Assembly: GCA_964023275.1 (NCBI GenBank)
Contig: OZ029927.1
Coordinates: 24,383,831 to 24,447,830 of the forward strand
Direction: 5' to 3'
Length of the DNA: 64,000 nt
Origin: Norana najaformis
Taxonomy: Eukaryota; Annelida; Clitellata; Crassiclitellata; Hormogastridae
This document shows positions 3,256 to 64,000 of the stretch, piece after piece (within the stretch, counting starts at the first letter, position 1; each line of letters starts with the position of its first letter). Position numbers and translations under genes: made by a program. The notes beneath the pieces were generated by a model that was not told where the DNA came from, ran no database searches, and saw nothing but the letters and a program-made list of their open reading frames with translations.

Positions 3256-3509
3256 TGTTCGGAATTGGAATGCGTTTACATTGCTTGCACTTGCAGTCTG
3301 TACTTGAAACAGACCTGCCATTAAATGTCGCCGAGTTTTCCAAATCCTGAATTCGGGACCTGACGTTTCGGCAGAAAAGACCTACGGAGGACCAACGAAT
3401 GTTGCACGAAGTCTTGTTGCCATCAACTTTTACGATATTTCTGTTTGCCTACCGATTTTGTCGCCGTCGCCTTTTCAAAGGTTAACCGTACAATGGGGAA
3501 TCAAGATAC

Positions 3510-3865
3510 TAGGTCCGTCCGTCCTTCTGTCCGTCCTTCTGTCCGTCCTTCTGTCCGTCCTTCTGTCCGTCCTTCTGTCTGTCCGTCCATCCAGCCATTC
3601 TTCTGTCCATCGACCGTCCGTCCGTCCTTCTGTCGGTTCATCCGTCCGTCCTTCTGTCGGTTCATCCGTCCGTCCTTCTGTCGGTTCATCCGTCCGTCCT
3701 TCTGTCGGTTCATCCGTCCGTCCTTGTGTCGGTTCATCCGTCAGTCCTTCTGTCGGTTCATCCGTCCGTCCTTCTGTCTGTCCGTCGGTCTTTTTGACCG
3801 TCCTGCTGTCCGGCCGTCCGGCCGTCCATCCTTCTGTTCATCGACGGTCCGTCCGTCCATGTGGA
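3510..3865. repeat. Pyrimidine-rich minisatellite (CCGTCCTTCTGT / GGTTCATCCGTC)
   Basis: A 12-bp unit (CCGTCCTTCTGT) is repeated about six times, then a 24-bp unit GGTTCATCCGTC plus CGTCCTTCTGTC about seven times. The units are multiples of three, so several frames stay open (216-codon ORF on +, 78-90 codon ORFs on -). These are Ser/Val/Arg/Pro repeat translations and not genes. Confidence 0.9.
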
Positions 3866-4539
3866 AGGTGTTGCTGTTAGTTCCCAGTTTCCCAGACGGG
3901 ATGTGCGGTGGACAGGGCGGAAATGACCCCCCGGAAGTTGCATCGATCGAGGAGCCTCGGCCGGGTGACCGACCGCCCTGGGACCCCGCGGGGCTCGATA
4001 GACGTTCCGACAATGCGTCAAATGGATGCTACACGGCGCGCTATCGATTGGCGAGGAACGGACAACGTATCGCAGTAGTACACCCGCGGCTATGACGGGG
4101 CGAATGTGTCTCTGGCGACCACATCCTGTGTCCGTCTGCGTCTCTCTCGTTCTCTCCGTGCGTCTGCATCTCTCGTTCTCTCCGTGCGTCTGCGTGCCAC
4201 CCAGTTTGATACATCAGCTGCGGAATGTTCCGGGAAAGAATTCCGTGGTTGCCATGGCGACTGGACTGTTGGCGGTATACCGCTGTTCAGATAGAGGGAG
4301 CGAACAGTTGCGGACTGCTTTGGCCGGTCGTGCGCAGTATGTCTGCGTTTTATTGAATACGACACCTGCTTATCTTTTTATTTTGTGTTTATATTCTATT
4401 TTGAGCCGCTATCTGGTTTCAGAGCTGCGCTCGATGGCGCTGGTTATAATTAGCAGTTGTGCGTTAGGTGTTGGACGCGCTCTCAAGGTGCTGACAGTGC
4501 AGGAAGGATCTGAGGGAGACTGAATGCGGAACAGAACTC
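3866..4539. other. GC-rich intergenic sequence, no recognised gene
   Basis: Contains a short imperfect repeat of CGTCTGCGTCTCTCTCG and CTCTCCGTG (4130-4200). The 165-codon ORF at 4026-4523 has no family resemblance and overlaps the repeat. I see nothing else. Confidence 0.45.
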
Positions 4540-4870
4540 TGCAGTTCGGCTTAAAACTTACCTGTTTCAGATTGCTTATCCACCGCAGCTGCGACACGGT
4601 GGTCTATCAGTAACCGGTTTGGTCATTGATCAAGCGATTGCGGGTTCGACTCAGTGTGACGACCCTGGCAAGTTGTTTGCGCACACCGTGCTTCTGTCAC
4701 GAAGCAGCGCAATTGTGTACCTGCGTAAGCTGGGAGATAAACAAGCCCTGATGCACTGGTCCCGTGTCCAGGACCCGCATCCATTGCCGGCTCAAGGGTC
4801 AGAAGAGAAGGAAATGAGCGCCTCCCCTACGTCTCACTTGTGGGATCATATGGGATACTTTATCCACCAT
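4540..4870 (+). mobile_element. LINE C-terminal scrap followed by SINE S1
   Basis: 4545-4590 reads RLKTYLFQIAYPPQ, the typical C-terminal end of a non-LTR element ORF. It is followed at 4593 by an S1 SINE: GGTGGTCTATCAGTAAC, B-box GGTTCGACTCAG, body GCGTAAGCTGGGAGATAAAC, end near 4870. The join suggests the SINE head adjoins or has captured a LINE end; a similar LINE scrap recurs at 40.1 kb. Confidence 0.7.
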
Positions 4871-5037
4871 AGGCTGCCTGTCTGTCTTGTTGACTGACCT
4901 TCTGGATACTGACATGATTGCGGCTGGGCTTTGGTGTTTGATGCGCCATCGGTTGATGCCTTGTGCATTAGACACCGACGCGTTAGAAACTACTAATTGC
5001 AGTTACAGTTACAGTTCAGAATGTAGATGAGAAACAG

Positions 5038-22196: not shown

Positions 22197-25100
22197 CAGT
22201 TATTAATATAATAATAATAATAAGTATACATAAATACATGCATACATACATATAGCTGCATAGACACATGGTTACAAAGATGCATAGATATAATAATAAT
22301 AATATTAATAATAATAATAAAAATAATAATATTATTAATAATAATAATAAAAATAATAATAATAATAACAATAACAACAATAATAATAATAATGTATATT
22401 TAGCAATTAATAGTAAAAACCATACTAATAATTTCTGGTATTGCCAGTTACCATTTCTGTTATCTCAGTTACCGTTTCAGGTATTACCAGTTGCAATATG
22501 TTATATTATCAGTTACCAGTTGCAGCATTTCCAGTTAGCATATGTGGTATTTCCAGTTACCATTTGTAATGTATGTTTTTCCAGTTACCATTTGCAGTAT
22601 TTCCATTTTCTATTTGTGGTATTTCCAGTTACCATTTGCAGTATTTCCATTTTCTATTTGTGGTATTTCCAGTTACCATTTACAGTATTTCCATTTGCCA
22701 TTTGTGGTATTTCCAGTTACCATTTACAGTATTTCCATTTGCCATTTGTGGTATTTCCAGTTACCGTTTACAGTATTTCCATTTGCCATTTGTGGTATTT
22801 CCAGTTACCATTTACAGTATTTCCATTTGCCATTTGTGGTATTTCCAGTTACCATTTGCAGTATTTCCATTTTCTATTTGTGGTATTTCCAGTTACCATT
22901 TGCAGTATTTCCATTTGCCATTTGTGGTATTTCCAGTTACCATTTACAGTATTTCCATTTGCCATTTGTGGTATTTCCAGTTACCATTTGCAGTATTTCC
23001 ATTTGCCATTTGTGGTATTTCCAGTTACCATTTACAGTATTTCCATTTGCCATTTGTGGTATTTCCAGTTACCATTTGCAGTATTTCCATTTGCCATTTG
23101 TGGTATTTCCAGTTACCATTTACAGTATTTCCATTTGCCATTTGTGGTATTTCCAGTTACCAGTTTCCGACAATGCAGAAGATTGGTGAAGACCTCGTTA
23201 CCATTTTAGATCAGCTGAAGTAAGTCCACCACGACATTCGATCCACTCGAACGTTTTTCTGTCCAATTATCTACATTTTTATAGCGCCGATTCGAATGAA
23301 AAGTATCAGTCGATGGTGCTGTGTACTGGCTGAAAATCCTGCAACGAATCAAGGGCTGATCACTCCGTGTTACAAGGGCTGATCACTCCGTGTTACAAGG
23401 GCTGATCACTCCGTGTTACAAGGGCTGATCACTCCGTGTTAAAAGGTCTGATCACTCCGTGTTACAAGGGCTGATCACTCCGTGGTAAAAGGTCTGATCA
23501 CTCCGTGTACAAGGGCTGATCACTCCCTGTTAAAAGGGCTGATCAATCCGTGTTACAAGCTGCACATGCGACCAGATAGTAACATGTAAATCAGACTTTC
23601 ACTCGAACGTTGGACATTACATTGCAATGCATTGCATGACTTAGGAATTTTAAGCGAAAAAAAAAACTTCGATGATTTACAGTAGGCCTATATTATGCCT
23701 GCATTACATTTTATTACATGGGTTTACATTAAATTGTATCGGTTTACTTCAATTTACATCACATGTGTTGACTATGCTGAGAAATTTCAATGATTTACGT
23801 TACTTAACCCTCCTACCGTACGCAAAACGACAGAAACACTTGAGCATATTCGCCGCAGTATGTGGCTTTTCTCAGGCAGAATATAAAACTCGTTAATAAA
23901 GTCCTTTGTCTCGGTTGGATCCCATCTGTCTCGTTTCCTGGACAATGAGAATGACCGACATCGGAATCGTATGAATCCAGGGTTGACGCCATTTCCATTT
24001 TCTTCCTCTCCTTACATAATAGAAGGCAATGTGTTTCATATAATGGGTACACTTCCTGTGAATCTTATCTTACCTGTGGTGTGCCTCAAGGCTCTGTCTT
24101 AGGCCCACTACTGTTTTTAATTTATGTCAATGATATATCGAACTCTTCCTCATTACTCCATTTTATTCTGTTTGCCGACGACACCAATGTATTCATGTCT
24201 GACAAATCTTTTGAATTGCTGGTTAATAAAATTAATGAAGAGCTAAAAATGGTATCAGCATGGTTCAAAGCAAATAAATTATCACTAAATATTAAGAAAA
24301 CGAATTTCATATTATTTAGCTCACAGAGAAAAATTATACCTAAATGTAATCTCGGTATAAAAATAGATAATATAAATATAAATCAGGTGTCATCCACAAA
24401 ATTTCTAGGAGTTCACATTGACGAACATTTGACTTGGAAAGAACACATAAATACCATATCTAAAAAAATATCAAAAAATATTGGTATTATCTCTCGTATC
24501 CGCCACAAATTACCCCAAAATATATTATTGAACCTATATTACTCCTTAATATATCCATATATCTCGTATTGCAACATTGTTTGGGCTTCCACATATCATA
24601 CTCGCCTGTCTAATCTTAGAACCCTACAGAAACGCATCATCAGAATTATATTTAATCTACCCTTCAGAACCAGCACTCGATTGTCCTTTCATAGTCAAGG
24701 AATATTACCTTTTGATTGTATTAATAAATTGCAAATAGGTTTATTTATGTTTAAACTAAAAAATAATCTATTACCTGTGGACTTCTACCAATACTTTTGT
24801 ATGAATTCAGATGTGCATGGTCACTATACACGATCATCTCATATGTATCATAAACATTCTGTTCACACTACTAATAGGCAGTTTAGTATTATAATATGTG
24901 GACCGTCATTCTGGAATTCTCTGCCAACTGTTATTACTAGCTTGCCAACATTATACCAGTTTAAAACAAATCTAAAATCTCATATACTCAATGCACGTAG
25001 TTAAGTATTTTTTTGGTGCTTAGTTAAGTGTTTTTTGTTTTGTTTAGGTTTATGCAATGACATTGATTATAATAATTACTTATATTTTAGATTATTAATT

Positions 25101-55182: not shown

Positions 55183-56526
55183 TTAAATGACCTGTGACTC
55201 TCTGGAGTGGGTTCTTGCATGTACATGAAGTTTACTACTTGTTAAAAACAATTTGTTGCAAAACTGACACACATATTGTTTTTCTCCAGCGTGGGCTCTT
55301 AAATGGTATGCCAAAGCAGTCTTCTGTGCAAATGCTTTGTGACAGAGTTTGCACTGGTATGGTTTTTCTCCAGTGTGGGTTCTTCTATGGGAGTCCAAGT
55401 AAGTCTTAATTGCAAACACTTTGTCACATAAAGTGCACTTGTATGGTTTTTCTCCAGTGTGGGTTCTTATATGGCAGTGCAAGGAATTCTTAAGTGCAAA
55501 TGCTTTGTGACAGAAAGTGCACTTATATGGCTTCTCTCCAGTATGGGTTCTCATATGGTTTTCCAGAGATTTTTTACAAGCAAATGCTTTTTCACATAAA
55601 TTGCAGTTGTATGGCTTTTCTCCAGTGTGGGTTCTTGTATGCCTTTCCATGTTACCTTTCCGTGAAAATGTTTTGTCACATAAATTGCAGTTGTATGGTT
55701 TTTCTCCAGTGTGGGTTCTTACATGGTTGGCCAGAGTATTCTTCCGTGCAAATGCCTTGTGACAAAGTTTACACTTGTATGGTTTTTCTCCAGCGTGGGC
55801 TCTTAAATGGTATACCAAAGCAGTATTCTGTGCAAATGCTTTGTGACAGAGTTTGCACTTGTATGGTTTTTCTCCAGTGTGGGTTCTTATATGGCAGTGC
55901 AAGGAATCCTTAAGTGCAAATGCTTTGTGACAGAAAGTGCACTTATATGGCTTCTCTCCAGTATGGGTTCTCATATGGTTTTCCAGAGATTTTTTACAAG
56001 CAAATGCTTTTTCACATAAATTGCAGTTGTATGGCTTTTCTCCAGTGTGGGTTCTTGTATGGCTTTCCATGTTACCTTTCCGTGAAAATGTATTGTCACA
56101 TAAATTGCAGTTGAATGGTTTTTCTCCAGTGTGGGCTCTTACATGGTTGGCCAGAGTATTCTTCCGTGCAAATGCCTTGTGACAAAGTTTACACTCGTAT
56201 GGTTTTTCTCCAGTGTGCCTTCTTCTGTGGATTTTCAGGTTACTCTTATGTGAAAATGCTTTGTCATATAAATTGCATTTGTATGGCTTTTCTCCAGTGT
56301 GGATTCTTGTGTGGTATTCCAGGTTAGTCTTCTGTGCAAATGCTTTGTCACATAAAGTGCACATATGTGGCCTTTCTCCAGCGTGGGTTGTTGTATGGTT
56401 TTCCAGAAGAACCTTCTGGGCAAATGCTTTGTGGCATAAATAACAATTGTACGATTTTTCAAGTTTGCATTCTTGCATGGAGTTTGGAATGTTTAATCTT
56501 TGCAAATATTTAGTTACATAATTCAC
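55183..56526 (-). CDS. C2H2 zinc-finger protein with 15 tandem fingers
   Basis: Probable sequence-specific DNA-binding nuclear protein. The open frame is nearly all C2H2 fingers (C-x2-C-x12-H-x3-H) joined by TGEKPY linkers. Finger 1 is YNCYLCHKAFAQKVLLENH and finger 15 ends LHVHARTH, followed by SRESQVI and the stop at 55183-55185. Finger 3 reads CNLY: its second Cys is Tyr, so it cannot bind zinc normally. Fingers 4-8 and 9-12 plus 14 are a duplicated block (ARKNTL, SRKGNM, ACKKSL, ALK(D/N)SL, AQ(N/K)TAL), with finger 13 (AIKTYL) inserted. No KRAB, BTB, SCAN or ZAD domain is visible. The frame's 5' end has no ATG before the GTG at 56526; the first in-frame ATG is 56478-56476 (MQECKLEK). The true start is there or in an upstream exon. 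Confidence 0.93.
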   Translation of the reverse strand: MNYVTKYLQRLNIPNSMQECKLEKSYNCYLCHKAFAQKVLLENHTTTHAGERPHMCTLCDKAFAQKTNLEYHTRIHTGEKPYKCNLYDKAFSHKSNLKIHRRRHTGEKPYECKLCHKAFARKNTLANHVRAHTGEKPFNCNLCDNTFSRKGNMESHTRTHTGEKPYNCNLCEKAFACKKSLENHMRTHTGEKPYKCTFCHKAFALKDSLHCHIRTHTGEKPYKCKLCHKAFAQNTALVYHLRAHAGEKPYKCKLCHKAFARKNTLANHVRTHTGEKPYNCNLCDKTFSRKGNMERHTRTHTGEKPYNCNLCEKAFACKKSLENHMRTHTGEKPYKCTFCHKAFALKNSLHCHIRTHTGEKPYKCTLCDKVFAIKTYLDSHRRTHTGEKPYQCKLCHKAFAQKTALAYHLRAHAGEKQYVCQFCNKLFLTSSKLHVHARTHSRESQVI

Positions 56527-56569
56527 GTTCCTACTGCTCTTCCTGGTTATTGTTTATTGAATGCATCTT

Positions 56570-57074
56570 CAGAAAGTCAGTGATCTTCAGATCGTCTATA
56601 TTCTTCAGATCTTTACGACAGATCGGTGATGAATTGCCAGGTTCGACGGTGATGCATTGACTGGTTCGGATTATGCCTAAGTTAACTAACGACAGCTAAG
56701 CGAGCGAACATCCGCTGCACGAGCTAACGGTCACTGACAGATATGTCAAAGTTACCACATAGGCGCAACGCTTCTAGGAGTCGCAACGCTGCAGTGTCTG
56801 TGTTGGAACGAATTCGTAGAAACCCGACCGACAAGAATCTCCTATCCGAACAATCGTCCAAAAGGGCTTGAATACCGATTACACGTAGCACTTGGGCTGC
56901 CACGGACACAACCGTCCAGTGTATCTGTAGCACGGTCACCGATGTTAACGAAGTTCCGGTAATGCTGACAAACACGTAGAACTCGAAATTTTTTAACAAA
57001 CAATTGAAACAAACAACTTTTGTACTTCGAAAGCTAACTTCCACAAAACTGATATCGATAGATGTAAGCGCCAC
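56570..57074 (-). promoter_or_regulatory. 5' exon/5' UTR of the minus-strand zinc-finger gene
   Basis: 56724-57074 on the minus strand aligns without gaps over about 120 bases with 62290-62420 on plus, upstream of the other zinc-finger gene. Shared words include CAAGTGCTACGTGTA, CAAGCCC, GACGA(C/T)TGTTCGGATA and TTCTTGTCGG. Both copies lie in open frames (116 and 133 codons), but most differences change amino acids, so a transcribed non-coding leader is likelier than a protein. Confidence 0.6.
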
Positions 57075-57122
57075 GCTCTGACGTCATCGACTTTCGGATG
57101 CTGAGCTTAATGACGTCAAACA
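57075..57122 (-). promoter_or_regulatory. Twin CRE-like promoter block of the minus-strand zinc-finger gene
   Basis: Two perfect TGACGTCA palindromes at 57079-57086 and 57111-57118, 32 bp apart. Between them on the minus strand lie CATCCGAAAGTCGA and a TTAA.CTC element. The same block with the same spacing precedes the other zinc-finger gene at 62122-62161. TGACGTCA is the CREB/ATF consensus. Confidence 0.72.
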
Positions 57123-57307
57123 TATAGTGTGTAGTTTCTGTTTAACGACGCTGTGTCATAACAAAGATGGCTAGCAGCGCCCTCTCCTTTATCCAGGCTT
57201 GGGACTGGCAGCACCAGAATACGGCTTGGCGTTGTTAATATAAAACGGTTGAGCCAAAGATTTTAAGAAGGCAACCTTCATAAAATTTTTGGGTTGAGCC
57301 ATCTATA
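57123..57307. repeat. Repeat module M1 copy next to the promoter
   Basis: TTTAACGACGCTGTGTCATA, GCGCCCTCTCCTTTATCCAG and GCTTGGGACTGGCAGCACC match 6815-6900. Confidence 0.6.
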
Positions 57308-60300
57308 TCGTAATCGTAATCGTAATCTCGAAATTTCTACAGCGCTCAACGAAAGCTAAGTCGCGGGAACCAGCTTATTCACAGGCGCTCAGTCAAAACA
57401 AAATCGATAGGCAAAAGGGTCAAGATCCAGGAGTCAGGCACTCAGACAGTCGGACGGCTACGGTGGATGCTGTTTGAAACTGAAGCGAGAAGAGAGACAA
57501 GAGGAAGAGGAAGAATCAGGATAAGATTTTTGGAAAAGAAGTGTTTTCAGTCTTGAGTGAAAGACCTGCGCAGAAACTGAAAGAGGTGAAGTGTTGGTGA
57601 GTTCGTATGATTGACCAGACAACTGTCGCAATTCTGGCGGGAGTTTATTCCAAAGGGGTGGGGCAGCTATGGCTATGGAGCGATTTCCAAATTTTAAGGA
57701 TGAGGTGACGGGAGGGCGAAGAAGTGTTAGGACAGATGAGGAGCGGGTTGAACGGAGTGGTTGGATAGTAAATAATTGACGAAGATAGGAGGGTTGGGAG
57801 GATTGAAGTGTGTTGTAGGTGAGGGATAAGACTTTGTACTCTATTCGTTCTGGTATTTTAAGCCAGTGCAGTGATTTGAGAACAGGGGTGATGTGATGGT
57901 ATTTGGGGGTTTTGGTGACAGCACGTGCGAGAGCATTCTGGATAGCTTGTAGGCGATTTATCTGGGTTGTGTCAATATTGAGGAAAAGTGAATTGCAGTA
58001 GTCAAGTTTTGCATGGACTATGGATGTGGCAATGATAGATGCGGTTTTGAAGTCAAGCATAGGACGGATTCTGCGAAGGTCGCGGATATGCATAAAGCAA
58101 GAGCGGGAAAGATGGCTGATATGATCAGAAAAAGTAAGGTTCTGGTCGAAAATAACACCTAAATTACGGACAGAGGAGTTAGTATTAAAGGTGTGGGTGG
58201 AGGCAGAGTCCAGGCTGAGGGAGATAGAGGGGTCAGGAATTTTCTTCAGCTGGTCACGTAGGCCTATAAGTATGAATTCAGTTTTAGATGGGTTCAGGCA
58301 TAAGAGATTAGATGTCATCCAAGAGGAGATTTGTTTAACCACACAAAGAAGATGATCTGTAGATTCATTGAAACAATTTGGAGAGAAAGAGATGAATAGT
58401 TGGGTGTCATCAGCATAGAGGTGATGGTCAACGGAGGATGCTTTAATGAGTGAACTGAGTGGGGTAGTGTAGAGGATAAACAGAAGAGGTCCAAGAACGG
58501 AGCCTTGTGGAACTCCGCAAGTAAGAGGGCATGACTTAGAAGAGGCTTCCGAAGTTTTAACAGAGAAAGAGCGGGAGGAGAGATAAGACTGTATCCATAG
58601 GAGAGCAGTGTCAGCAAAACCAAACCAGGTTGAAAGTCGGTGGAGTAAGATATTGTGATCTATGGTGTCGAAGGCTGCAGAGATATCGAGGAGACAGAGG
58701 CAAGAAACCTGTTGATGAGAAATGGCAGAAACAAGCTTGTTGTAGAGAGATGTCAGCAGAGTTTCGGTTGAGTGGCGTTTAGTAAAACCAGACTGGTGTG
58801 GGTTAATGAGTGAGTTAGAAGCTAAATAGTTATTGATTCGAGAGAGGACAATCCGTTCAGTTAATTTGGAGATGAAAGTCAGGTTAGAAACAGGCCGGTA
58901 GTTAGAAAGGATTTCCTTGTCGAGAGATGATTTCTTGAGAAGAGGGGTAACAAGAGAGTGTTTAAAAAGAAGGGGAAAATTTCCAGTAGAGAGAGAGAGG
59001 TTAACTATTTTGGTAATAATTGGAACAAGGACAGATGCACAGTCTTTCAATAAGGAGGTAGGTATAGGGTCAAGTTCACATTGTTTGTTTGGGAGAGATT
59101 TTAGCAGATTTAGTATTTCGGTCTCTGATGTAGGTTGAAAAGCAGAAAATGAGGATCGAGGTGGGGAAGGTGGACTGTCATAGGTGGAAGAGGGAGCATC
59201 AGCAGCTGGATTGTTGGAGGTTTTGGAAAGTAGAGATTGAAGAGAGAGACGGAGGGTACTAATTTTGTTCGAAAAGAAAGAACAGAACGAGTCGGCTATT
59301 GAAGAAGACGGAAGAGAATTTGGAAGTGGACTAGATGAGTTCCGATGGAGGAGCTGGTTAATAGTTTTCCAGAGAAGGCGAGGGCTAGAGGATCGAGAAC
59401 GAACTAGTGAGGAGTAAAATCTTTGTTTAGTTGCAGTAAGAAGGCGATGGTATTTATTTGTGGCAGATTTAAGGGCAGAGAGAAGTTGAGGATCCCTGGT
59501 GCGTTTATAGGCACGCTCAAGGCGTCGCCGGAAAGATTTGAAGGCCTGGAGATAGGAATTGAACCAAGGATTGTTAGAGTGAGAACGGGATTTGGTAATA
59601 ATAGGAGCATGCTTGTCAAGGATAGTGGAAAGAGTGGTGTTATATGAAGAGAGAAGGTCATTCAGGGAGGAGGGTGGATTTAACACGAGATCAGAACAGG
59701 AAATATCTTGTGTGAAGGCTTCAATATTTATTGAACTGATGCGACGAAAAGAATGAAAGACAGGATCAGGACGTGGTGTCGGAAGAATGTTAAGATATGT
59801 AAAGATGGGGTAATGATCAGATGGCGAGTCAAAAGAGAAAGATATATCAGGTGATAGAGTGGAGAACGATGACGTGATAATGAGGTCAAGTGTGTGATTG
59901 TGAATGTGGGTGGGGAATTTGACATGTTGAACCAGATTAGTTGAGGACAATAGGGTGAGGAATTCAGAAGCAAATGTGTCAGAGGGGTTATCGACATGTA
60001 TATTGAAGTCACCTGTAATCAGAAATTCATGAGGTGTAGTGGCGGCAGTAGAGAGGAGGGTGGTAAATTCTTTCAGGAAGACCGATGGAGGACTTGAATA
60101 TGAAGAGGAGGATGGAGGGCGATATACATTAAAGATAGTCAGATTTGTGTGAGGAAGTTTAAGCGTAACTGATGCACATTCAAAAGAGTGGAAACAGTAA
60201 CCAGGTGAGTCTAAAACTGTGGCAGGTTCTCGGGTGAGAAAGGCAATACCACCGCCAGTTGGATTTTTATGAGAAGGGCTAGATGGTTTGCAAGGACGAG

Positions 60301-61160
60301 GTGTACTGTAAAGATGGTAGCCAGGAGGAATACAGTCTTCATATTGAGCAAGAGTGGTGTTTAAATTAAACCAGGTTTCAGATAAGGCAAATATGTCAGG
60401 CGGGTGAGAAGAGAGGGCTATATCACTGATTTCTTGTGAATGTGCAGGATGTAGTAATGATCGAATATTTAGCGTGCAAAGTAAGAAGCGGTTGTTGTCA
60501 GTATTTTGAGCATTGTCGAGGATGTTGGAGGAAGAAATTCTGGAAGGAGGAGGACAGGTAGGAGGTGAGGGAGGAGGACATGAATAAAAATCCAGTGGGC
60601 CAGGATTTGGGTGGATGTCCCCGGAAAGCAGGATTAGTATGTTGAAGATGGTATGGCGGGTGAGGTGCTGTGGTGGTCGCCTGAGAGATGAAGTTAGGAA
60701 GAACGATAAAGGAATAAAATACATACGTCCATACTGCATAGTCGCAGTGCCAAATTGGGCGCAGTAAGAATGTTTGGCTGTAGGAACAATGTAGGGCAAG
60801 CGGGTGTGGAAGGGTTGGCAACTAATATGGAAGGCGATCATGAAACGTAGACCGAAAATAAGAAGAATGATTGAACTGTACATTATGTGATCTAAGATGA
60901 CGTGGCAGTTTGATGAAGCTAAAATGGCGGAAGGTAAAGACGCAGGCGAACGAGTGCAAAAAGGACAAAAATTAGGCGAATCTTAAGTTGATTAAATGTT
61001 GAAACAAATAGGAACGAACTCACCAAAGACAGAGCATAAATCCGGTAAGAAAGAAAAATTAAAAAATCAGAAAAGACGTCGAAAAGTTAGAAAATATAGA
61101 ATTGAGAAATAAAGCGCAGACGCCGCGACGCTGGTTCCCTACTCCCGTAGACGTCGTTGG
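57308..61160 (-). mobile_element. Probably full-length APE/RT LINE (family A master copy)
   Basis: The element reads on the minus strand. A 5' leader spans about 61160-60884, then the 1141-codon ORF (60883-57458), a 150-bp 3' UTR and a terminal (ATTACG)n tail at 57308-57330. The 3' UTR contains the GAATAAGCTGGTTCCCGCGA and GACTTAGCTTTCGTTGAGCG blocks found in all family A tails. No clear target-site duplication is visible. The 5' boundary is estimated. Confidence 0.9.
57458..60883 (-). CDS. LINE ORF: endonuclease plus reverse transcriptase, intact
   Basis: 1141 codons, ATG at 60883, TAG at 57458-57460, no internal stop. Residues 1-88 contain hydrophobic stretches (SIILLIFGLRFMIAF; YFIPLSFFL; IFNILILL). 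These are followed at 88-96 by GDIHPNPGP, a 2A-like motif. The APE-type endonuclease spans about 130-370: TLNIRS (Asn139), SETW (Glu169), VYRPPSS, GDFNIH (291-296), TLDLII and SDHYP (355-359). The reverse transcriptase spans about 590-870: NYRPVSNL, FDTIDHN, CGVPQGSVLGP and the catalytic YADD at 823-826. The C-terminal region ends LWNKLPPELRQ and SRLKTLLFQKSYPD. It nicks target DNA and copies its own RNA at the nick. No RNase H or gag-like ORF1 is seen. Most like the CR1/L2 clade. Confidence 0.95.
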   Translation of the reverse strand: MYSSIILLIFGLRFMIAFHISCQPFHTRLPYIVPTAKHSYCAQFGTATMQYGRMYFIPLSFFLTSSLRRPPQHLTRHTIFNILILLSGDIHPNPGPLDFYSCPPPSPPTCPPPSRISSSNILDNAQNTDNNRFLLCTLNIRSLLHPAHSQEISDIALSSHPPDIFALSETWFNLNTTLAQYEDCIPPGYHLYSTPRPCKPSSPSHKNPTGGGIAFLTREPATVLDSPGYCFHSFECASVTLKLPHTNLTIFNVYRPPSSSSYSSPPSVFLKEFTTLLSTAATTPHEFLITGDFNIHVDNPSDTFASEFLTLLSSTNLVQHVKFPTHIHNHTLDLIITSSFSTLSPDISFSFDSPSDHYPIFTYLNILPTPRPDPVFHSFRRISSINIEAFTQDISCSDLVLNPPSSLNDLLSSYNTTLSTILDKHAPIITKSRSHSNNPWFNSYLQAFKSFRRRLERAYKRTRDPQLLSALKSATNKYHRLLTATKQRFYSSLVRSRSSSPRLLWKTINQLLHRNSSSPLPNSLPSSSIADSFCSFFSNKISTLRLSLQSLLSKTSNNPAADAPSSTYDSPPSPPRSSFSAFQPTSETEILNLLKSLPNKQCELDPIPTSLLKDCASVLVPIITKIVNLSLSTGNFPLLFKHSLVTPLLKKSSLDKEILSNYRPVSNLTFISKLTERIVLSRINNYLASNSLINPHQSGFTKRHSTETLLTSLYNKLVSAISHQQVSCLCLLDISAAFDTIDHNILLHRLSTWFGFADTALLWIQSYLSSRSFSVKTSEASSKSCPLTCGVPQGSVLGPLLFILYTTPLSSLIKASSVDHHLYADDTQLFISFSPNCFNESTDHLLCVVKQISSWMTSNLLCLNPSKTEFILIGLRDQLKKIPDPSISLSLDSASTHTFNTNSSVRNLGVIFDQNLTFSDHISHLSRSCFMHIRDLRRIRPMLDFKTASIIATSIVHAKLDYCNSLFLNIDTTQINRLQAIQNALARAVTKTPKYHHITPVLKSLHWLKIPERIEYKVLSLTYNTLQSSQPSYLRQLFTIQPLRSTRSSSVLTLLRPPVTSSLKFGNRSIAIAAPPLWNKLPPELRQLSGQSYELTNTSPLSVSAQVFHSRLKTLLFQKSYPDSSSSSCLSSRFSFKQHPP

Positions 61161-61194
61161 ATTGAATCAAATGTGGTGGTTTAACGGTGGCCCA

Positions 61195-61312
61195 ACCAGA
61201 TTAATCGTAACGTTAAGCTCCAGAATTGCTAAAGCACTACTTAAAAGCTAAGCCCTGAGGACCAGCTTATCACGAGCGTTGCATCAAGTCTGAGTTTTGT
61301 CCAGTGATACCA
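61195..61312 (-). mobile_element. Non-LTR family B tail, inverted and diverged
   Basis: TTAATCGTAACGTTAAGCTC, AAGCACTACTTAAAAGCTAA and GACCAGCTTATCACGAGCG are the reverse complement of the 2765-2975 end. Confidence 0.6.
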
Positions 61313-61790
61313 TATGAAGACCAAATTCTGTTGCCCGAATACTAGAGAGAAATTAAAAGACAAAATAGCTGTTACGACAAGTTGTGTTTAAGTAGAAAGA
61401 AACAGCTATGTCCGCGGCCGATAGGATAGATCAGGTTAACATTTCTTGAAAGGTGAGACTTTAGGTCACTTTATACACTGTAGTTTAAGTTTTGAATGTA
61501 AAACCTGATGAGAAATACTTGACAGACAGACTTTATAGATCATGATACTGGGTGATCGAAACAAGAGTTGGAGATACTGGGAATTTTCAGAATTCAGCTG
61601 GGAGATAGTTCAATGGCGTGGCGCAGTACGGGGGATATAGAACGGTCAGAGAACTTCAGATGAATAGGCCTATGTGACTTGGGACAGGCAAGAGTAAGAT
61701 ACGAGGACAATCTGGTACAGAGGACAATGATTGTGATAAAAAAATCCGAATAGCCGAATTGCACAGCAAGAAAAATTCCTTCTGGACCAC
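61313..61790. other. Intergenic, no recognised feature
   Basis: AT-rich sequence; ORFs without motifs. Confidence 0.4.
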
Positions 61791-61794
61791 TATC

Positions 61795-62078
61795 AGGAAT
61801 TTTACTGAAAACTGAAAATACTCCGCAGATCCTAACCTGATCCCAATCAATCTTCTTCCCGTTATCTATCATGCAGATCCAGTTCCAAACACTATTCACA
61901 GTAGCCGTCTGACTGCCTATCTGCCTACCTGTCTGACTCTTGGATCATAATGTAGAACCGAACCCTTCCTGGCTATCAATTTTGTTTTGACTGAGCACCT
62001 GCGAATATGTCAAATGGTTCCGGCGACTTCGCTTTCGTTGGGCTCTGTAGAAATGTCGAGCTATGGTTATGATTTGTT
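61795..62078 (+). mobile_element. LINE family A ORF end and 3' tail
   Basis: GAAAACTGAAAATACTCCGC, AGATCCTAACCTGATCCCAA, TAGAACCGAACCCTTCCTGG, CGACTTCGCTTTCGTTGGGC and a degenerate tail GAGCTATGGTTATGATT. Ends about 45 bp before the plus-strand zinc-finger promoter block. Confidence 0.82.
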
Positions 62079-62119
62079 TTAATATAGCATCGCTAAGCAG
62101 AAACTACAAATCATCAATC

Positions 62120-62165
62120 TAAGACGTCATTAATCTCGACATCCGAAAGTTGATGACGTCAGATC
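62120..62165 (+). promoter_or_regulatory. Twin CRE-like promoter block of the plus-strand zinc-finger gene
   Basis: AGACGTCA at 62122-62129 and TGACGTCA at 62154-62161, 32 bp apart, with ATTAATCTCGACATCCGAAAG between. This matches the minus-strand block at 57075-57122 in sequence and spacing; the first site has lost one base of the palindrome. Confidence 0.72.
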
Positions 62166-62600
62166 GCTGCGATCCTACCAACCGATAGCCATTTTTCTTG
62201 CGTTTTGATTTTGAGGTACAAAAGCTGTTTATTTTCGGTGTAGCCTCGACTTTTTCATGTTTTCTGCTCTTAGTTAGCATTTCTCGAACTTTGTTGTCAT
62301 CGGCCACCGTGTTACATATATATAGAGGGGTTGTCTTCGTGAGAGCTCAAGTGCTACGTGTAGCCTCTAATCAAGCCCGTTCGGACGACTGTTCGGATAC
62401 GAGAGGTTCTTGTCGGCCATCTTTCGACGAATTCGTTGCAACAGATATGCTGCACCGCAGCGCCATAGAAACTTCTGGAAGCGCTGCGCTGAAGTGGTTA
62501 CTTTGGCGTGATCCGACTGTGATCGTCAGGTCGTGCTGCTTATGTTCACTCGCTTTGGTGTCATTCTTCAACTTACTTATATTACATAATAGCCTTTAAC
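62166..62600 (+). promoter_or_regulatory. 5' exon/5' UTR of the plus-strand zinc-finger gene
   Basis: Homologous to 56724-57074 (minus) as described there; the shared stretch is clearest at 62290-62420. The 133-codon ORF at 62198-62599 lacks a recognisable domain. A splice donor was not fixed. Confidence 0.55.
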
Positions 62601-63114
62601 GACCCAGTGTCAAATGCACCAGGCATCCACCGATGACGCACCAAAGCCAAGCCACAATGATGTAAATATCCAGAAAGTCGGTCCAAAAGAGAGGCCGCCT
62701 AGGGTGGATAAGCAGTTTGAAAAGGTAACTTTTAAGTTGAGAACGAAATGACAGAAGCGACTAAACAGAATAAACAGATACAAGGATGGAGTTCTAAAAA
62801 TTTATGTCCAGCAACCGAAAAATCCCGCTCACAAAGAACTATTATAGTCTTAGGTATGCAAATAATGGTAAATCTCGGGTAATCAGTCTAAGGACTGATT
62901 TTAAGTATTCTGGCCGACCAGAATTCAACGCTTTGTAGACTAAGTCCAAATTTCAAAGCAGACCCTGCCTGAAGAGGAAGGTAATGCATAGGGGTTATAT
63001 TCTGATATTTAGACATATTTGTTATGGCTCTAAAATTGTAGGTGCAATCTGGAACACCACCTCTCTACCGTAAAGATCTCAAGATTATAGAAGATCGGAA
63101 AATCACAGACTCTG
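62601..63114 (+). other. Presumed intron of the plus-strand zinc-finger gene
   Basis: Contains family E-like words (AAAGAGAGGCCGCCTAGGGT and GGATAAGCAGTTTGAAAAG near 62690). No coding homology. Confidence 0.4.
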
Positions 63115-64000
63115 ATGATGAATTCAAGAAAGTATAACAACGAAAAGAAATATAAACGTGAATTTTGTAACAAAACATTTGCAGAGATTAGGCATCTCAA
63201 AGTTGATTCAAAAACACAATCTGTAGAAAAACCATACAACTGCAGTTTATGTCACAAATCATTTGCACATAAGCAGAACCTGGAAAACCATGCAAGAACC
63301 CACACTGAAGAAAAGCCTTATAAGTGCAATTTATGTGACAAAGCCTTTGCAAGGAAACAGACTCTAGAATGCCATACAAGAATCCACACTGGAGAAAAAC
63401 CATACAAATGCAGTTTATGTCACAAATCATTTGCACATAAGCAGACCCTGGAAAACCATGCAAGAACCCACACTGGAGAAAAGCCTTATAAGTGCAATTT
63501 ATGTGACAAAGCCTTTGCAAAGAAACAGACTCTAGAATGCCATACAAGAATCCACACTGGAGAAAAACCATACAAATGCAATTTATGTGACAAAGCATTT
63601 GCACAGACACATTCTCTAGAATACCATACAAGAATCCACACAGGAGAAAAACCATACAAGTGTAAACTCTGTCACAAAGCATTTGCATGGAAGAATACTC
63701 TGGCATGCCACATAAGAACCCACACGGGGGAAAAGCAATACATGTGTAAATTTTGCAACAAATTGTTTTCAACATGTAGAAATCTTCATGTGCATGCAAA
63801 ATCCCACACTGGCGAAAAGCCATATAAGTGCGATTTATGTAACAAAGCATTTGCACATAAGCAATCTCTGGACTACCACACAAGAGCCCACAGTGGAGAA
63901 AAGCCATACATGTGTAATTTATGTGACAAAGGATTTGCACGGAAGCCTAATCTAGTATGCCATGCAAGAACCCACACTGGAGAAAAGCCATACAACTGCA
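63115..64000 (+). CDS. C2H2 zinc-finger protein, cut by window end
   Basis: Open frame from the ATG at 63115 (first ATG after an in-frame TAG at 63091-63093) through the window end, 295 codons. MMNSRKYNNEKKYKREFC is followed by a degenerate first finger lacking its first Cys and both His. Nine complete C2H2 fingers with TGEKPY-type linkers follow, from YNCSLCHKSFAHKQNLENH to YMCNLCDKGFARKPNLVCH, and a tenth starts at the edge (YNC). Two fingers at 63224-63391 are repeated almost exactly at 63392-63559. The YMCKFCNKLFSTCRNLHVH finger parallels YVCQFCNKLFLTSSKLHVH of the other gene, marking them as paralogs. It may be spliced to an upstream exon. Confidence 0.9.
   Translation, partial: MMNSRKYNNEKKYKREFCNKTFAEIRHLKVDSKTQSVEKPYNCSLCHKSFAHKQNLENHARTHTEEKPYKCNLCDKAFARKQTLECHTRIHTGEKPYKCSLCHKSFAHKQTLENHARTHTGEKPYKCNLCDKAFAKKQTLECHTRIHTGEKPYKCNLCDKAFAQTHSLEYHTRIHTGEKPYKCKLCHKAFAWKNTLACHIRTHTGEKQYMCKFCNKLFSTCRNLHVHAKSHTGEKPYKCDLCNKAFAHKQSLDYHTRAHSGEKPYMCNLCDKGFARKPNLVCHARTHTGEKPYNC

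What the first reader, a model, noticed from the sequence alone, without database searches (positions are those of the whole stretch)
57075..62165. Head-to-head zinc-finger paralogs share a promoter with two CRE-like sites at fixed 32-bp spacing
Seen: TGACGTCA pairs at 57079/57111 and at 62122/62154, each 32 bp apart, with the same intervening ATCCGAAAGT core. They are followed outward by a homologous leader and then a C2H2 array. The block is preserved while the leader has drifted. Inference: the pair arose by inverted duplication of a gene with its promoter, and the twin CRE block is under constraint. CREB/ATF binding to TGACGTCA is established knowledge; its use here is inferred. The LINE and other repeats between them came later or were carried along.
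Basis: partly seen in the sequence, partly recalled or inferred. Interest (0 to 1): 0.75.

Follow-up and report, generated by a model that had tools for sequence, protein, structure and literature searches.

The report
One CRE anchors zinc-finger gene family
About forty related zinc-finger genes scattered through this animal's genome each carry their own copy of one promoter, and by far the best kept part of it is a single eight-letter site of the kind that CREB-type proteins recognise, which suggests that the family answers to one shared signal.

Summary
Three sites are exact TGACGTCA; the fourth (62122) is AGACGTCA. The genes do not share a promoter: each has its own, 5 kb apart. In the window's 608-Mb genome the block matches 19 places (0 in a reversed control), 19 of 19 upstream, same strand, of a C2H2 array. 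Recruiting by the leader alone gave 39 usable promoters. The gene-proximal CRE is the most constrained 8-mer: exact in 35 of 39, 5 parsimony steps against a leader mean of 55, 0 of 379 windows as low. The distal site is usually AGACGTCA (TGACGTCA in 2 of 39; 113 of 379 windows as low); the ATCCGAAAG core is at most weakly constrained (17 or 162 of 379, by gap treatment). The 32-bp spacing holds in 16 of 39. Genes A and B lie across a 100/100 split of the family tree, so they are not simple inverted duplicates. Best reading: a C2H2 expansion whose copies each kept one CREB/ATF-type promoter. Binding, start sites and expression are untested. Unexplained: LINE 3' ends lie just upstream in 18 of 43 copies, always sense.

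The parts
57079..57086 (-). Gene-proximal CRE (TGACGTCA) of gene A: the constrained element
   Evidence: its columns are the most conserved 8-mer in 39 leader-recruited copies
57111..57118 (-). Distal CRE-like site of gene A (TGACGTCA; an unusual state, 2 of 39 copies)
57091..57099 (-). ATCCGAAAG core between the two sites of gene A; at most weak constraint in the family
57030..57037 (-). Second conserved leader element (consensus TTAGATTT, here TTAGCTTT), 49 bp downstream of the proximal CRE start
   Evidence: 14 parsimony steps, the best 8-mer that does not overlap the CRE; position read by eye
56678..57078 (-). Leader of gene A downstream of its CRE, homologous to that of gene B and of about 40 other loci
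55183..56553 (-). Gene A: C2H2 array of 14 fingers in one frame. The N-terminus homologous to gene B's carries stop codons and further finger remnants lie beyond the stop: probably a decaying gene
57311..60982 (-). Non-LTR retrotransposon (LINE) with endonuclease and reverse transcriptase in one 1174-codon open frame, sense to gene A, ending upstream of its promoter
61862..62074 (+). LINE 3' end, sense to gene B, with a counterpart in 8 of 9 members of gene B's clade (gene B included)
62122..62129 (+). Distal CRE-like site of gene B (AGACGTCA, the commonest state of the family)
62141..62149 (+). ATCCGAAAG core between the two sites of gene B
62154..62161 (+). Gene-proximal CRE (TGACGTCA) of gene B
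62204..62211 (+). Counterpart of the TTAGATTT element in gene B (TTTGATTT)
   Evidence: Position read by eye; element
62162..62575 (+). Leader of gene B
62576..63054 (+). About 480 bp between leader and finger exon of gene B that gene A lacks; part of it matches a repeat at 4860-4975
63118..64000 (+). Gene B: open frame MNSRKYNNEKKYKREFC... followed by C2H2 fingers, running past the window end

Best explanation
The window holds two members of a family of C2H2 zinc-finger genes (44 loci found here, a lower bound) that spread by duplication, most likely of DNA. Of the 44, 22 sit at 53-59 Mb of contig C1 and 10 at 24.2-24.5 Mb of C15; two more are elsewhere on C1, and one or two each on C2, C5, C6, C8, C12, C13, C14 and C17. 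Each copy took its own promoter and 5' leader with it. The anchor of that promoter is one gene-proximal CRE, TGACGTCA, lying 0.5-0.7 kb before the first finger in 14 of the 19 block-recruited copies. It is kept by purifying selection while the DNA upstream has been replaced again and again by LINE ends and other repeats, and while the leader has drifted (genes A and B 71% identical). Most likely a CREB/ATF-class bZIP protein binds this site as the basal activator, so the family forms one co-regulated set. Shown: the copies, their position and strand relative to the arrays, the constraint on the proximal site, and the looseness of the twin arrangement. Inferred: bZIP binding, the transcription start, co-expression and the signal.
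For: Block genome-wide: 19 matches, 0 in the reversed control. 19 of 19 have a same-strand C2H2 array downstream and no finger on the opposite strand in the 10 kb held (L013 and L016 hold runs of N). A leader-only search found 40 loci: 17 of the 19 plus 23 new. Of the first 21 new ones read, 20 show fingers in the stretch held, and the 21st has an N-terminus match about 1.5 kb downstream; L059 and L060 also hold fingers. In 39 leader-recruited copies the proximal CRE needs 5 parsimony steps, against mean 55.0, sd 12.0, minimum 14 over 379 leader 8-mers (gaps as missing: 4 against 36.9, minimum 14). In the 22 copies that the block pattern had missed, a set biased against the site, it is still first: 5 against mean 29.3, 0 of 378 as low. 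Upstream DNA is a mosaic: in many pairs of copies homology stops between -1 and about -50 bp of the block. A LINE tail or (ATT)n replaces the distal site in L052 and L042, and what reads by eye as LINE coding sequence ends next to an intact CRE in L062. A conserved N-terminus (MHSRNYNQEKQYEREFCNKTFAQ...) precedes the fingers in most copies. Finger positions -1, +2, +3, +5, +6 are the most variable of 388 distinct fingers. The genome holds one pKID match over Pfam's cut-off (29.6 bits, positions 3-23 of 41).
Against: No transcript, CAGE or binding data were available, so the promoter role rests on position and conservation. The proximal site is mutated in 6 of 42 copies, 4 of them in gene B's clade of 9, so it is not indispensable everywhere. 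Copies with broken frames (L004, L005, L062) still carry an intact CRE, so the site does not simply follow coding integrity. Some pairs keep homology well upstream of the block (to -116, -260, -460). A palindromic TGACGTCA is bound by several bZIP classes, and other proteins are possible.
Confidence: 0.7

Rival explanations
1. Twin-CRE module: two CREs three helical turns apart, with the ATCCGAAAG core, form one composite site under constraint.
For: Genes A and B show it (B with one mismatch). 16 of 39 leader-recruited copies have a distal site within one mismatch at exactly 32 bp, and 30 of 39 keep a distal CGTCA half-site. With gaps counted as changes the core has 43 steps, 17 of 379 leader 9-mers as low, distal CGTCA 46 of 379 and CGTCATTA 32 of 379.
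Against: Full TGACGTCA at the distal site in 2 of 39; spacing 29, 31, 33 or 34 in 8 of 39; none within one mismatch at 20-45 bp in 14 of 39; one copy (L044) not measured. Distal 8-mer 48 steps, 113 of 379 windows as low; with gaps as missing 165 of 379, and the core 162 of 379. In the 22 copies missed by the block pattern neither stands out, but that set is biased against the block. Copies with the distal site lost or changed by two or more letters (L039, L040, L041, L042, L046, L052, L056) have N-terminus matches with frames of 285-743 codons and no stop inside.
Confidence: 0.15
2. The conserved promoter is only the trace of recent common descent and gene conversion, with no selection on the CRE.
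For: The copies are paralogs, several are tandem and close (L057/L058, L049/L054), and the leader outside the block is itself fairly conserved (mean 0.78 in the 19 copies).
Against: The test counts changes on the leader's own tree, so common descent is allowed for, and the CRE still has about a tenth of the changes of the rest. Copies on eight contigs keep it (C1, C5, C6, C8, C12, C14, C15, C17). It contains a CpG, which might be expected to mutate faster, though CpG is only mildly depleted here (observed/expected 0.81 in the window).
Confidence: 0.07
3. A protein other than CREB/ATF (for example an AP-1-like bZIP, or a zinc-finger product of the family acting on itself) reads the site.
For: Only the 8-mer is known, and several bZIP classes bind TGACGTCA (established knowledge, recalled). 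A second conserved element (TTAGATTT at +49) has no assigned reader.
Against: Nothing specific; the palindromic CRE is the classical CREB/ATF site (recalled), and a partial pKID match is encoded.
Confidence: 0.2
4. The block and leader are a transposable element that happens to lie near zinc-finger genes.
For: Dispersed copies on ten contigs; LINE ends next to many of them.
Against: 19 of 19 block matches are on the same strand as a C2H2 array, in 17 of 19 with the first finger 0.5-1.3 kb downstream; leader-recruited copies do likewise, and most arrays begin with one conserved N-terminus.
Confidence: 0.03

Closest known systems
Lineage-specific C2H2 zinc-finger expansions (vertebrate KRAB-ZNF clusters, recalled; cephalopod C2H2 expansions, PMC12513265, of which I saw 12 found passages including parts of the summary)
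   Same: Tandem and dispersed copies, long finger arrays with TGEKPY linkers, most variation at DNA-contact positions, surroundings rich in retrotransposons.
   Different: No Pfam effector domain such as KRAB was found in the two window frames. A find in the main text of PMC12513265 gave 0 occurrences each of 'promoter', 'upstream' and 'motif', so a shared promoter module is not described there in those words.
CREB/ATF (CRE) target promoters (recalled)
   Same: One palindromic TGACGTCA close to the 5' leader; the genome holds a partial pKID match over the cut-off.
   Different: Here one site recurs through a whole gene family. Binding, start sites and cAMP response are untested.
Duplicated regulatory elements as a source of co-regulated sets (PMC13333887; only the start of the abstract was seen, in the listing)
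   Same: Related cis elements spread by duplication may form a co-regulated set.
   Different: Here the element is the promoter of the duplicated gene itself, in a genome that looks like an invertebrate's.

Membership tests
Lineage-specific C2H2 zinc-finger expansion | Many paralogs with arrays of C2H2 fingers joined by TGEKP-type linkers | tested here: met
   Pfam zf-C2H2 and zf-H2C2_2 in both window genes; arrays at 19 of 19 block loci; 180 matches to the N-terminus-plus-finger query, 150 of 3822 candidates scored
Lineage-specific C2H2 zinc-finger expansion | Restricted to one lineage | not testable with these tools
   No other animal genomes are held; the tool states that this genome has no relatives here
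KRAB-ZNF (or ZAD, FINZ) family | A recognisable N-terminal effector domain | tested here: not met
   Pfam listed only zinc-finger families and a few weak unrelated ones in the two window frames; gene A's N-terminus is broken and other copies were not scanned
CRE/CREB-ATF target promoter | TGACGTCA kept near the 5' end of the gene | tested here: met
   Exact in 35 of 39 leader-recruited copies and the most conserved 8-mer
CRE/CREB-ATF target promoter | Occupancy by CREB/ATF/CREM and response to cAMP or loss of the factor | not testable with these tools
   No binding or expression data; only a partial pKID match was found
CRE/CREB-ATF target promoter | Transcription start within about 100 bp of the CRE | not testable with these tools
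   No CAGE or RNA-seq
   distal TGACGTCA in 2 of 39; a distal site within one mismatch at 32 bp in 16 of 39; 113 of 379 leader windows as low as the distal 8-mer. Weak constraint on a distal half-site and the core is not excluded

The most novel reading that the evidence does not exclude
A whole duplicating arsenal of C2H2 genes is wired to a single bZIP input through one retained 8-bp site, so that a cAMP/CREB-class (perhaps germline CREM-like) signal turns the family on at once. The same open promoters act as a recurrent landing zone for LINE 3' ends in sense orientation, so that the retrotransposons the family may police keep arriving at its doorstep.
Probability: 0.2. Interest if true: 0.75.

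Novelty: new member of a known kind. Interest (0 to 1): 0.5.

Why it matters
How young, fast-duplicating zinc-finger families are switched on is, as far as I recall, poorly known outside vertebrates. Here the many copies act as a natural mutagenesis of one promoter and single out one CRE as the part that matters most. That gives a sharp, cheap test (one site, one factor class, about 40 genes) of whether a whole family is under common control.

Tried and rejected
Two-copy conservation of the block was rejected as evidence: the permutation gives 81%. The conservation profile of the 19 block-recruited copies was rejected as biased by how they were found, and replaced by leader-only recruitment. 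The 22-copy subset consists of leader hits that the block pattern had missed, so it is biased against the block; it is used only as a hard test of the proximal site. On recheck of this bias, and of the core's 17 of 379, I raised the twin-CRE rival from 0.12 to 0.15 and lowered the best explanation from 0.72 to 0.70. A first parsimony run had two rows (L006, L010) anchored to neighbouring genes; one search replaced it and the result did not change. An idea that LINE 3' transduction spread the genes found no support: in the 10 kb held for the dispersed copies L014 and L018 there is no sense LINE tail after the array, and L013 and L018 share about 460 bp of upstream DNA, which points to DNA duplication. 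Literature: two searches for zinc-finger expansions with such a promoter returned 0 papers; in the listings I saw no paper that describes such a module, but only listings were seen, apart from PMC12513265 (passages). A search by assembly size did not identify the species. ARAGORN found 0 tRNA genes. Random 10-kb control regions and unrelated C2H2 arrays could not be fetched, so the rate of CREs before other C2H2 families is known from one case only (L063: no exact site in 1951 bp).

Full report
Observation. The window has three exact TGACGTCA sites (57079, 57111, 62154). The fourth, at 62122, is AGACGTCA. Spacing (32 bp) and the ATCCGAAAGT core are as described. Gene A runs on the minus strand and gene B on the plus strand. 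The homologous stretch is 57165-56678 against 62073-62575, 356 of 503 columns identical. From these two copies the block is not demonstrably better kept than its surroundings: 81% of 20,000 column permutations hold a 40-column window as good. The two genes each have their own promoter; they do not share one.

Genome-wide test. The window lies in a 608,420,607-base, 17-contig assembly. A 35-place pattern of the block with up to 3 mismatches matched 19 places and its reversed control 0. In all 19, a C2H2 array follows on the same strand, its first finger 489-3121 bp after the block (489-687 in 14 of 19), and no finger lies on the other strand in the 10 kb held (one copy, L008, also has a finger upstream on the same strand; L013 and L016 hold runs of N). 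Most copies share an N-terminus MHSRNYNQEKQYEREFCNKTFAQ... before the fingers; L004 is broken and gene A's N-terminus carries stops.

Correcting for how copies were found. Because those 19 were chosen by the block, I searched again with 355 bases of leader that start about 18 bp after the end of the proximal CRE. It gave 45 matches at 40 loci (40 of 58 candidates scored, so a lower bound): 17 of the 19 and 23 new. One new locus (L060) lacks the 5' half of the leader and was dropped; 39 remained. On a tree built from the leader only, Fitch steps were counted per column (one search is an earlier run with two mis-anchored rows). The proximal CRE has 5 steps; 379 leader 8-mers have mean 55.0, sd 12.0, minimum 14. 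With gaps as missing it has 4 against 36.9, minimum 14. It is exact in 35 of 39. The distal 8-mer has 48 steps (113 of 379 windows as low; gaps as missing 165 of 379) and is AGACGTCA in 19 of 39 and TGACGTCA in 2 of 39. The core has 43 steps (17 of 379 as low; gaps as missing 162 of 379). Distal half-site CGTCA: 46 of 379 as low, present in 30 of 39. So distal site and core show at most weak constraint, and the proximal site is in a class of its own.

The 22 copies missed by the block pattern are biased against the block, so their neutral distal site (31 steps, 242 of 378 as low) and core (41 against a 9-mer mean of 33.0) prove little. The proximal site, against the same bias, is still first: 5 steps against mean 29.3, 0 of 378 as low. 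The best leader 8-mer that does not overlap the CRE is TTAGATTT at +49 (14 steps); its meaning is unknown.

Upstream mosaic. In pairwise comparison of the 19 block copies, homology upstream of the block often ends between -1 and about -50 bp, though some pairs keep it to -116, -260 or -460. In L052 a LINE tail and in L042 an (ATT)n run replace the distal site. In L062 what reads by eye as LINE coding sequence ends next to an intact proximal CRE. These natural replacements suggest that the 5' edge of what is needed lies close to the proximal CRE. A LINE 3' end lies within 250 bp upstream in sense orientation in 18 of 43 copies and antisense in 0 of 43; at random points of the window the figures are 9.0% and 4.9% (gene A's own LINE supplied one of the five query tails). 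Eight of nine members of gene B's clade have one ending 59-80 bp before the CRE, so the 18 are not independent; the orientation bias is left unexplained.

History. A tree of 42 leaders puts gene B with the plus-strand C15 neighbours (L019, L038b, L061, L055) and four others (L014, L053, L056, L059), support 100/100, and gene A with 32 others, 23 of them on C1. Holding A and B together costs 36 log units, AU p 0.041; the bootstrap had not settled and the root is a midpoint. So they are not simple inverted duplicates, though they might descend from the founding duplication. The proximal CRE is mutated in 4 of 9 of gene B's clade against 2 of 33 elsewhere (Fisher p 0.013, post hoc), which suggests relaxed constraint there. 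Two further members came from the N-terminus search: L061, with leader and a mutated proximal site, and L062. That makes 44 loci in all. A related array on C12 (L063) has a similar N-terminus but no significant leader match and no exact CRE in 1951 bp, so the module may be particular to this clade.

Mechanism. Steps shown: copies, position, strand, constraint. Steps inferred: that TGACGTCA is read by a CREB/ATF-class bZIP (one pKID match over the cut-off, 29.6 bits, positions 3-23 of 41), that it sets a nearby start site, and that the family is co-expressed. Finger positions -1, +2, +3, +5 and +6 are the most variable, as in families that diversify their targets (recalled); what they bind is unknown.

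Limits. No other animal genomes, expression or binding data were available. Counts are lower bounds. Controls on unrelated C2H2 arrays and random regions could not be fetched. The species was not identified.

Noticed in passing
Upstream of L005, L006, L007, L008, L009, L010, L011, L014, L016, L019, L039, L050, L052, L053, L056, L038b, L059, L061: LINE 3' ends (GATTAC-type tail) lie within 250 bp upstream of the proximal CRE always in sense orientation: 18 of 43 sense, 0 of 43 antisense.
   Followed up: partly
57311-60982 (-): A LINE with endonuclease and reverse transcriptase in one uninterrupted 1174-codon frame; 21 further stretches like its 3' end lie in the 64-kb window.
   Followed up: partly
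57030-57037 (-) and 62204-62211 (+); consensus TTAGATTT in the family: Most conserved leader element apart from the CRE, 49 bp after the CRE start; no known reader assigned.
   Followed up: no
C12 0.1-3.6 Mb, C2 2.9-6.3 Mb, C11 22-28 Mb of the genome: Further C2H2 arrays that the leader search did not list; L063 on C12 has a similar N-terminus.
   Followed up: partly
L014, L038b, L055, L061: The proximal CRE is mutated in 4 of 9 copies of gene B's clade, against 2 of 33 elsewhere.
   Followed up: partly
L005, L007, L008, L010, L013, L016, L018 upstream of the block: A short hairpin-like repeat (CCAAAGATTTTAA ... TTAAAATCTTTGG, with GGCTCAAC), or part of it, recurs upstream of the block (read by eye).
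   Followed up: no
22256-23209 and 3308-4095: Long open frames that look like products of tandem or simple repeats; probably not genes.
   Followed up: no
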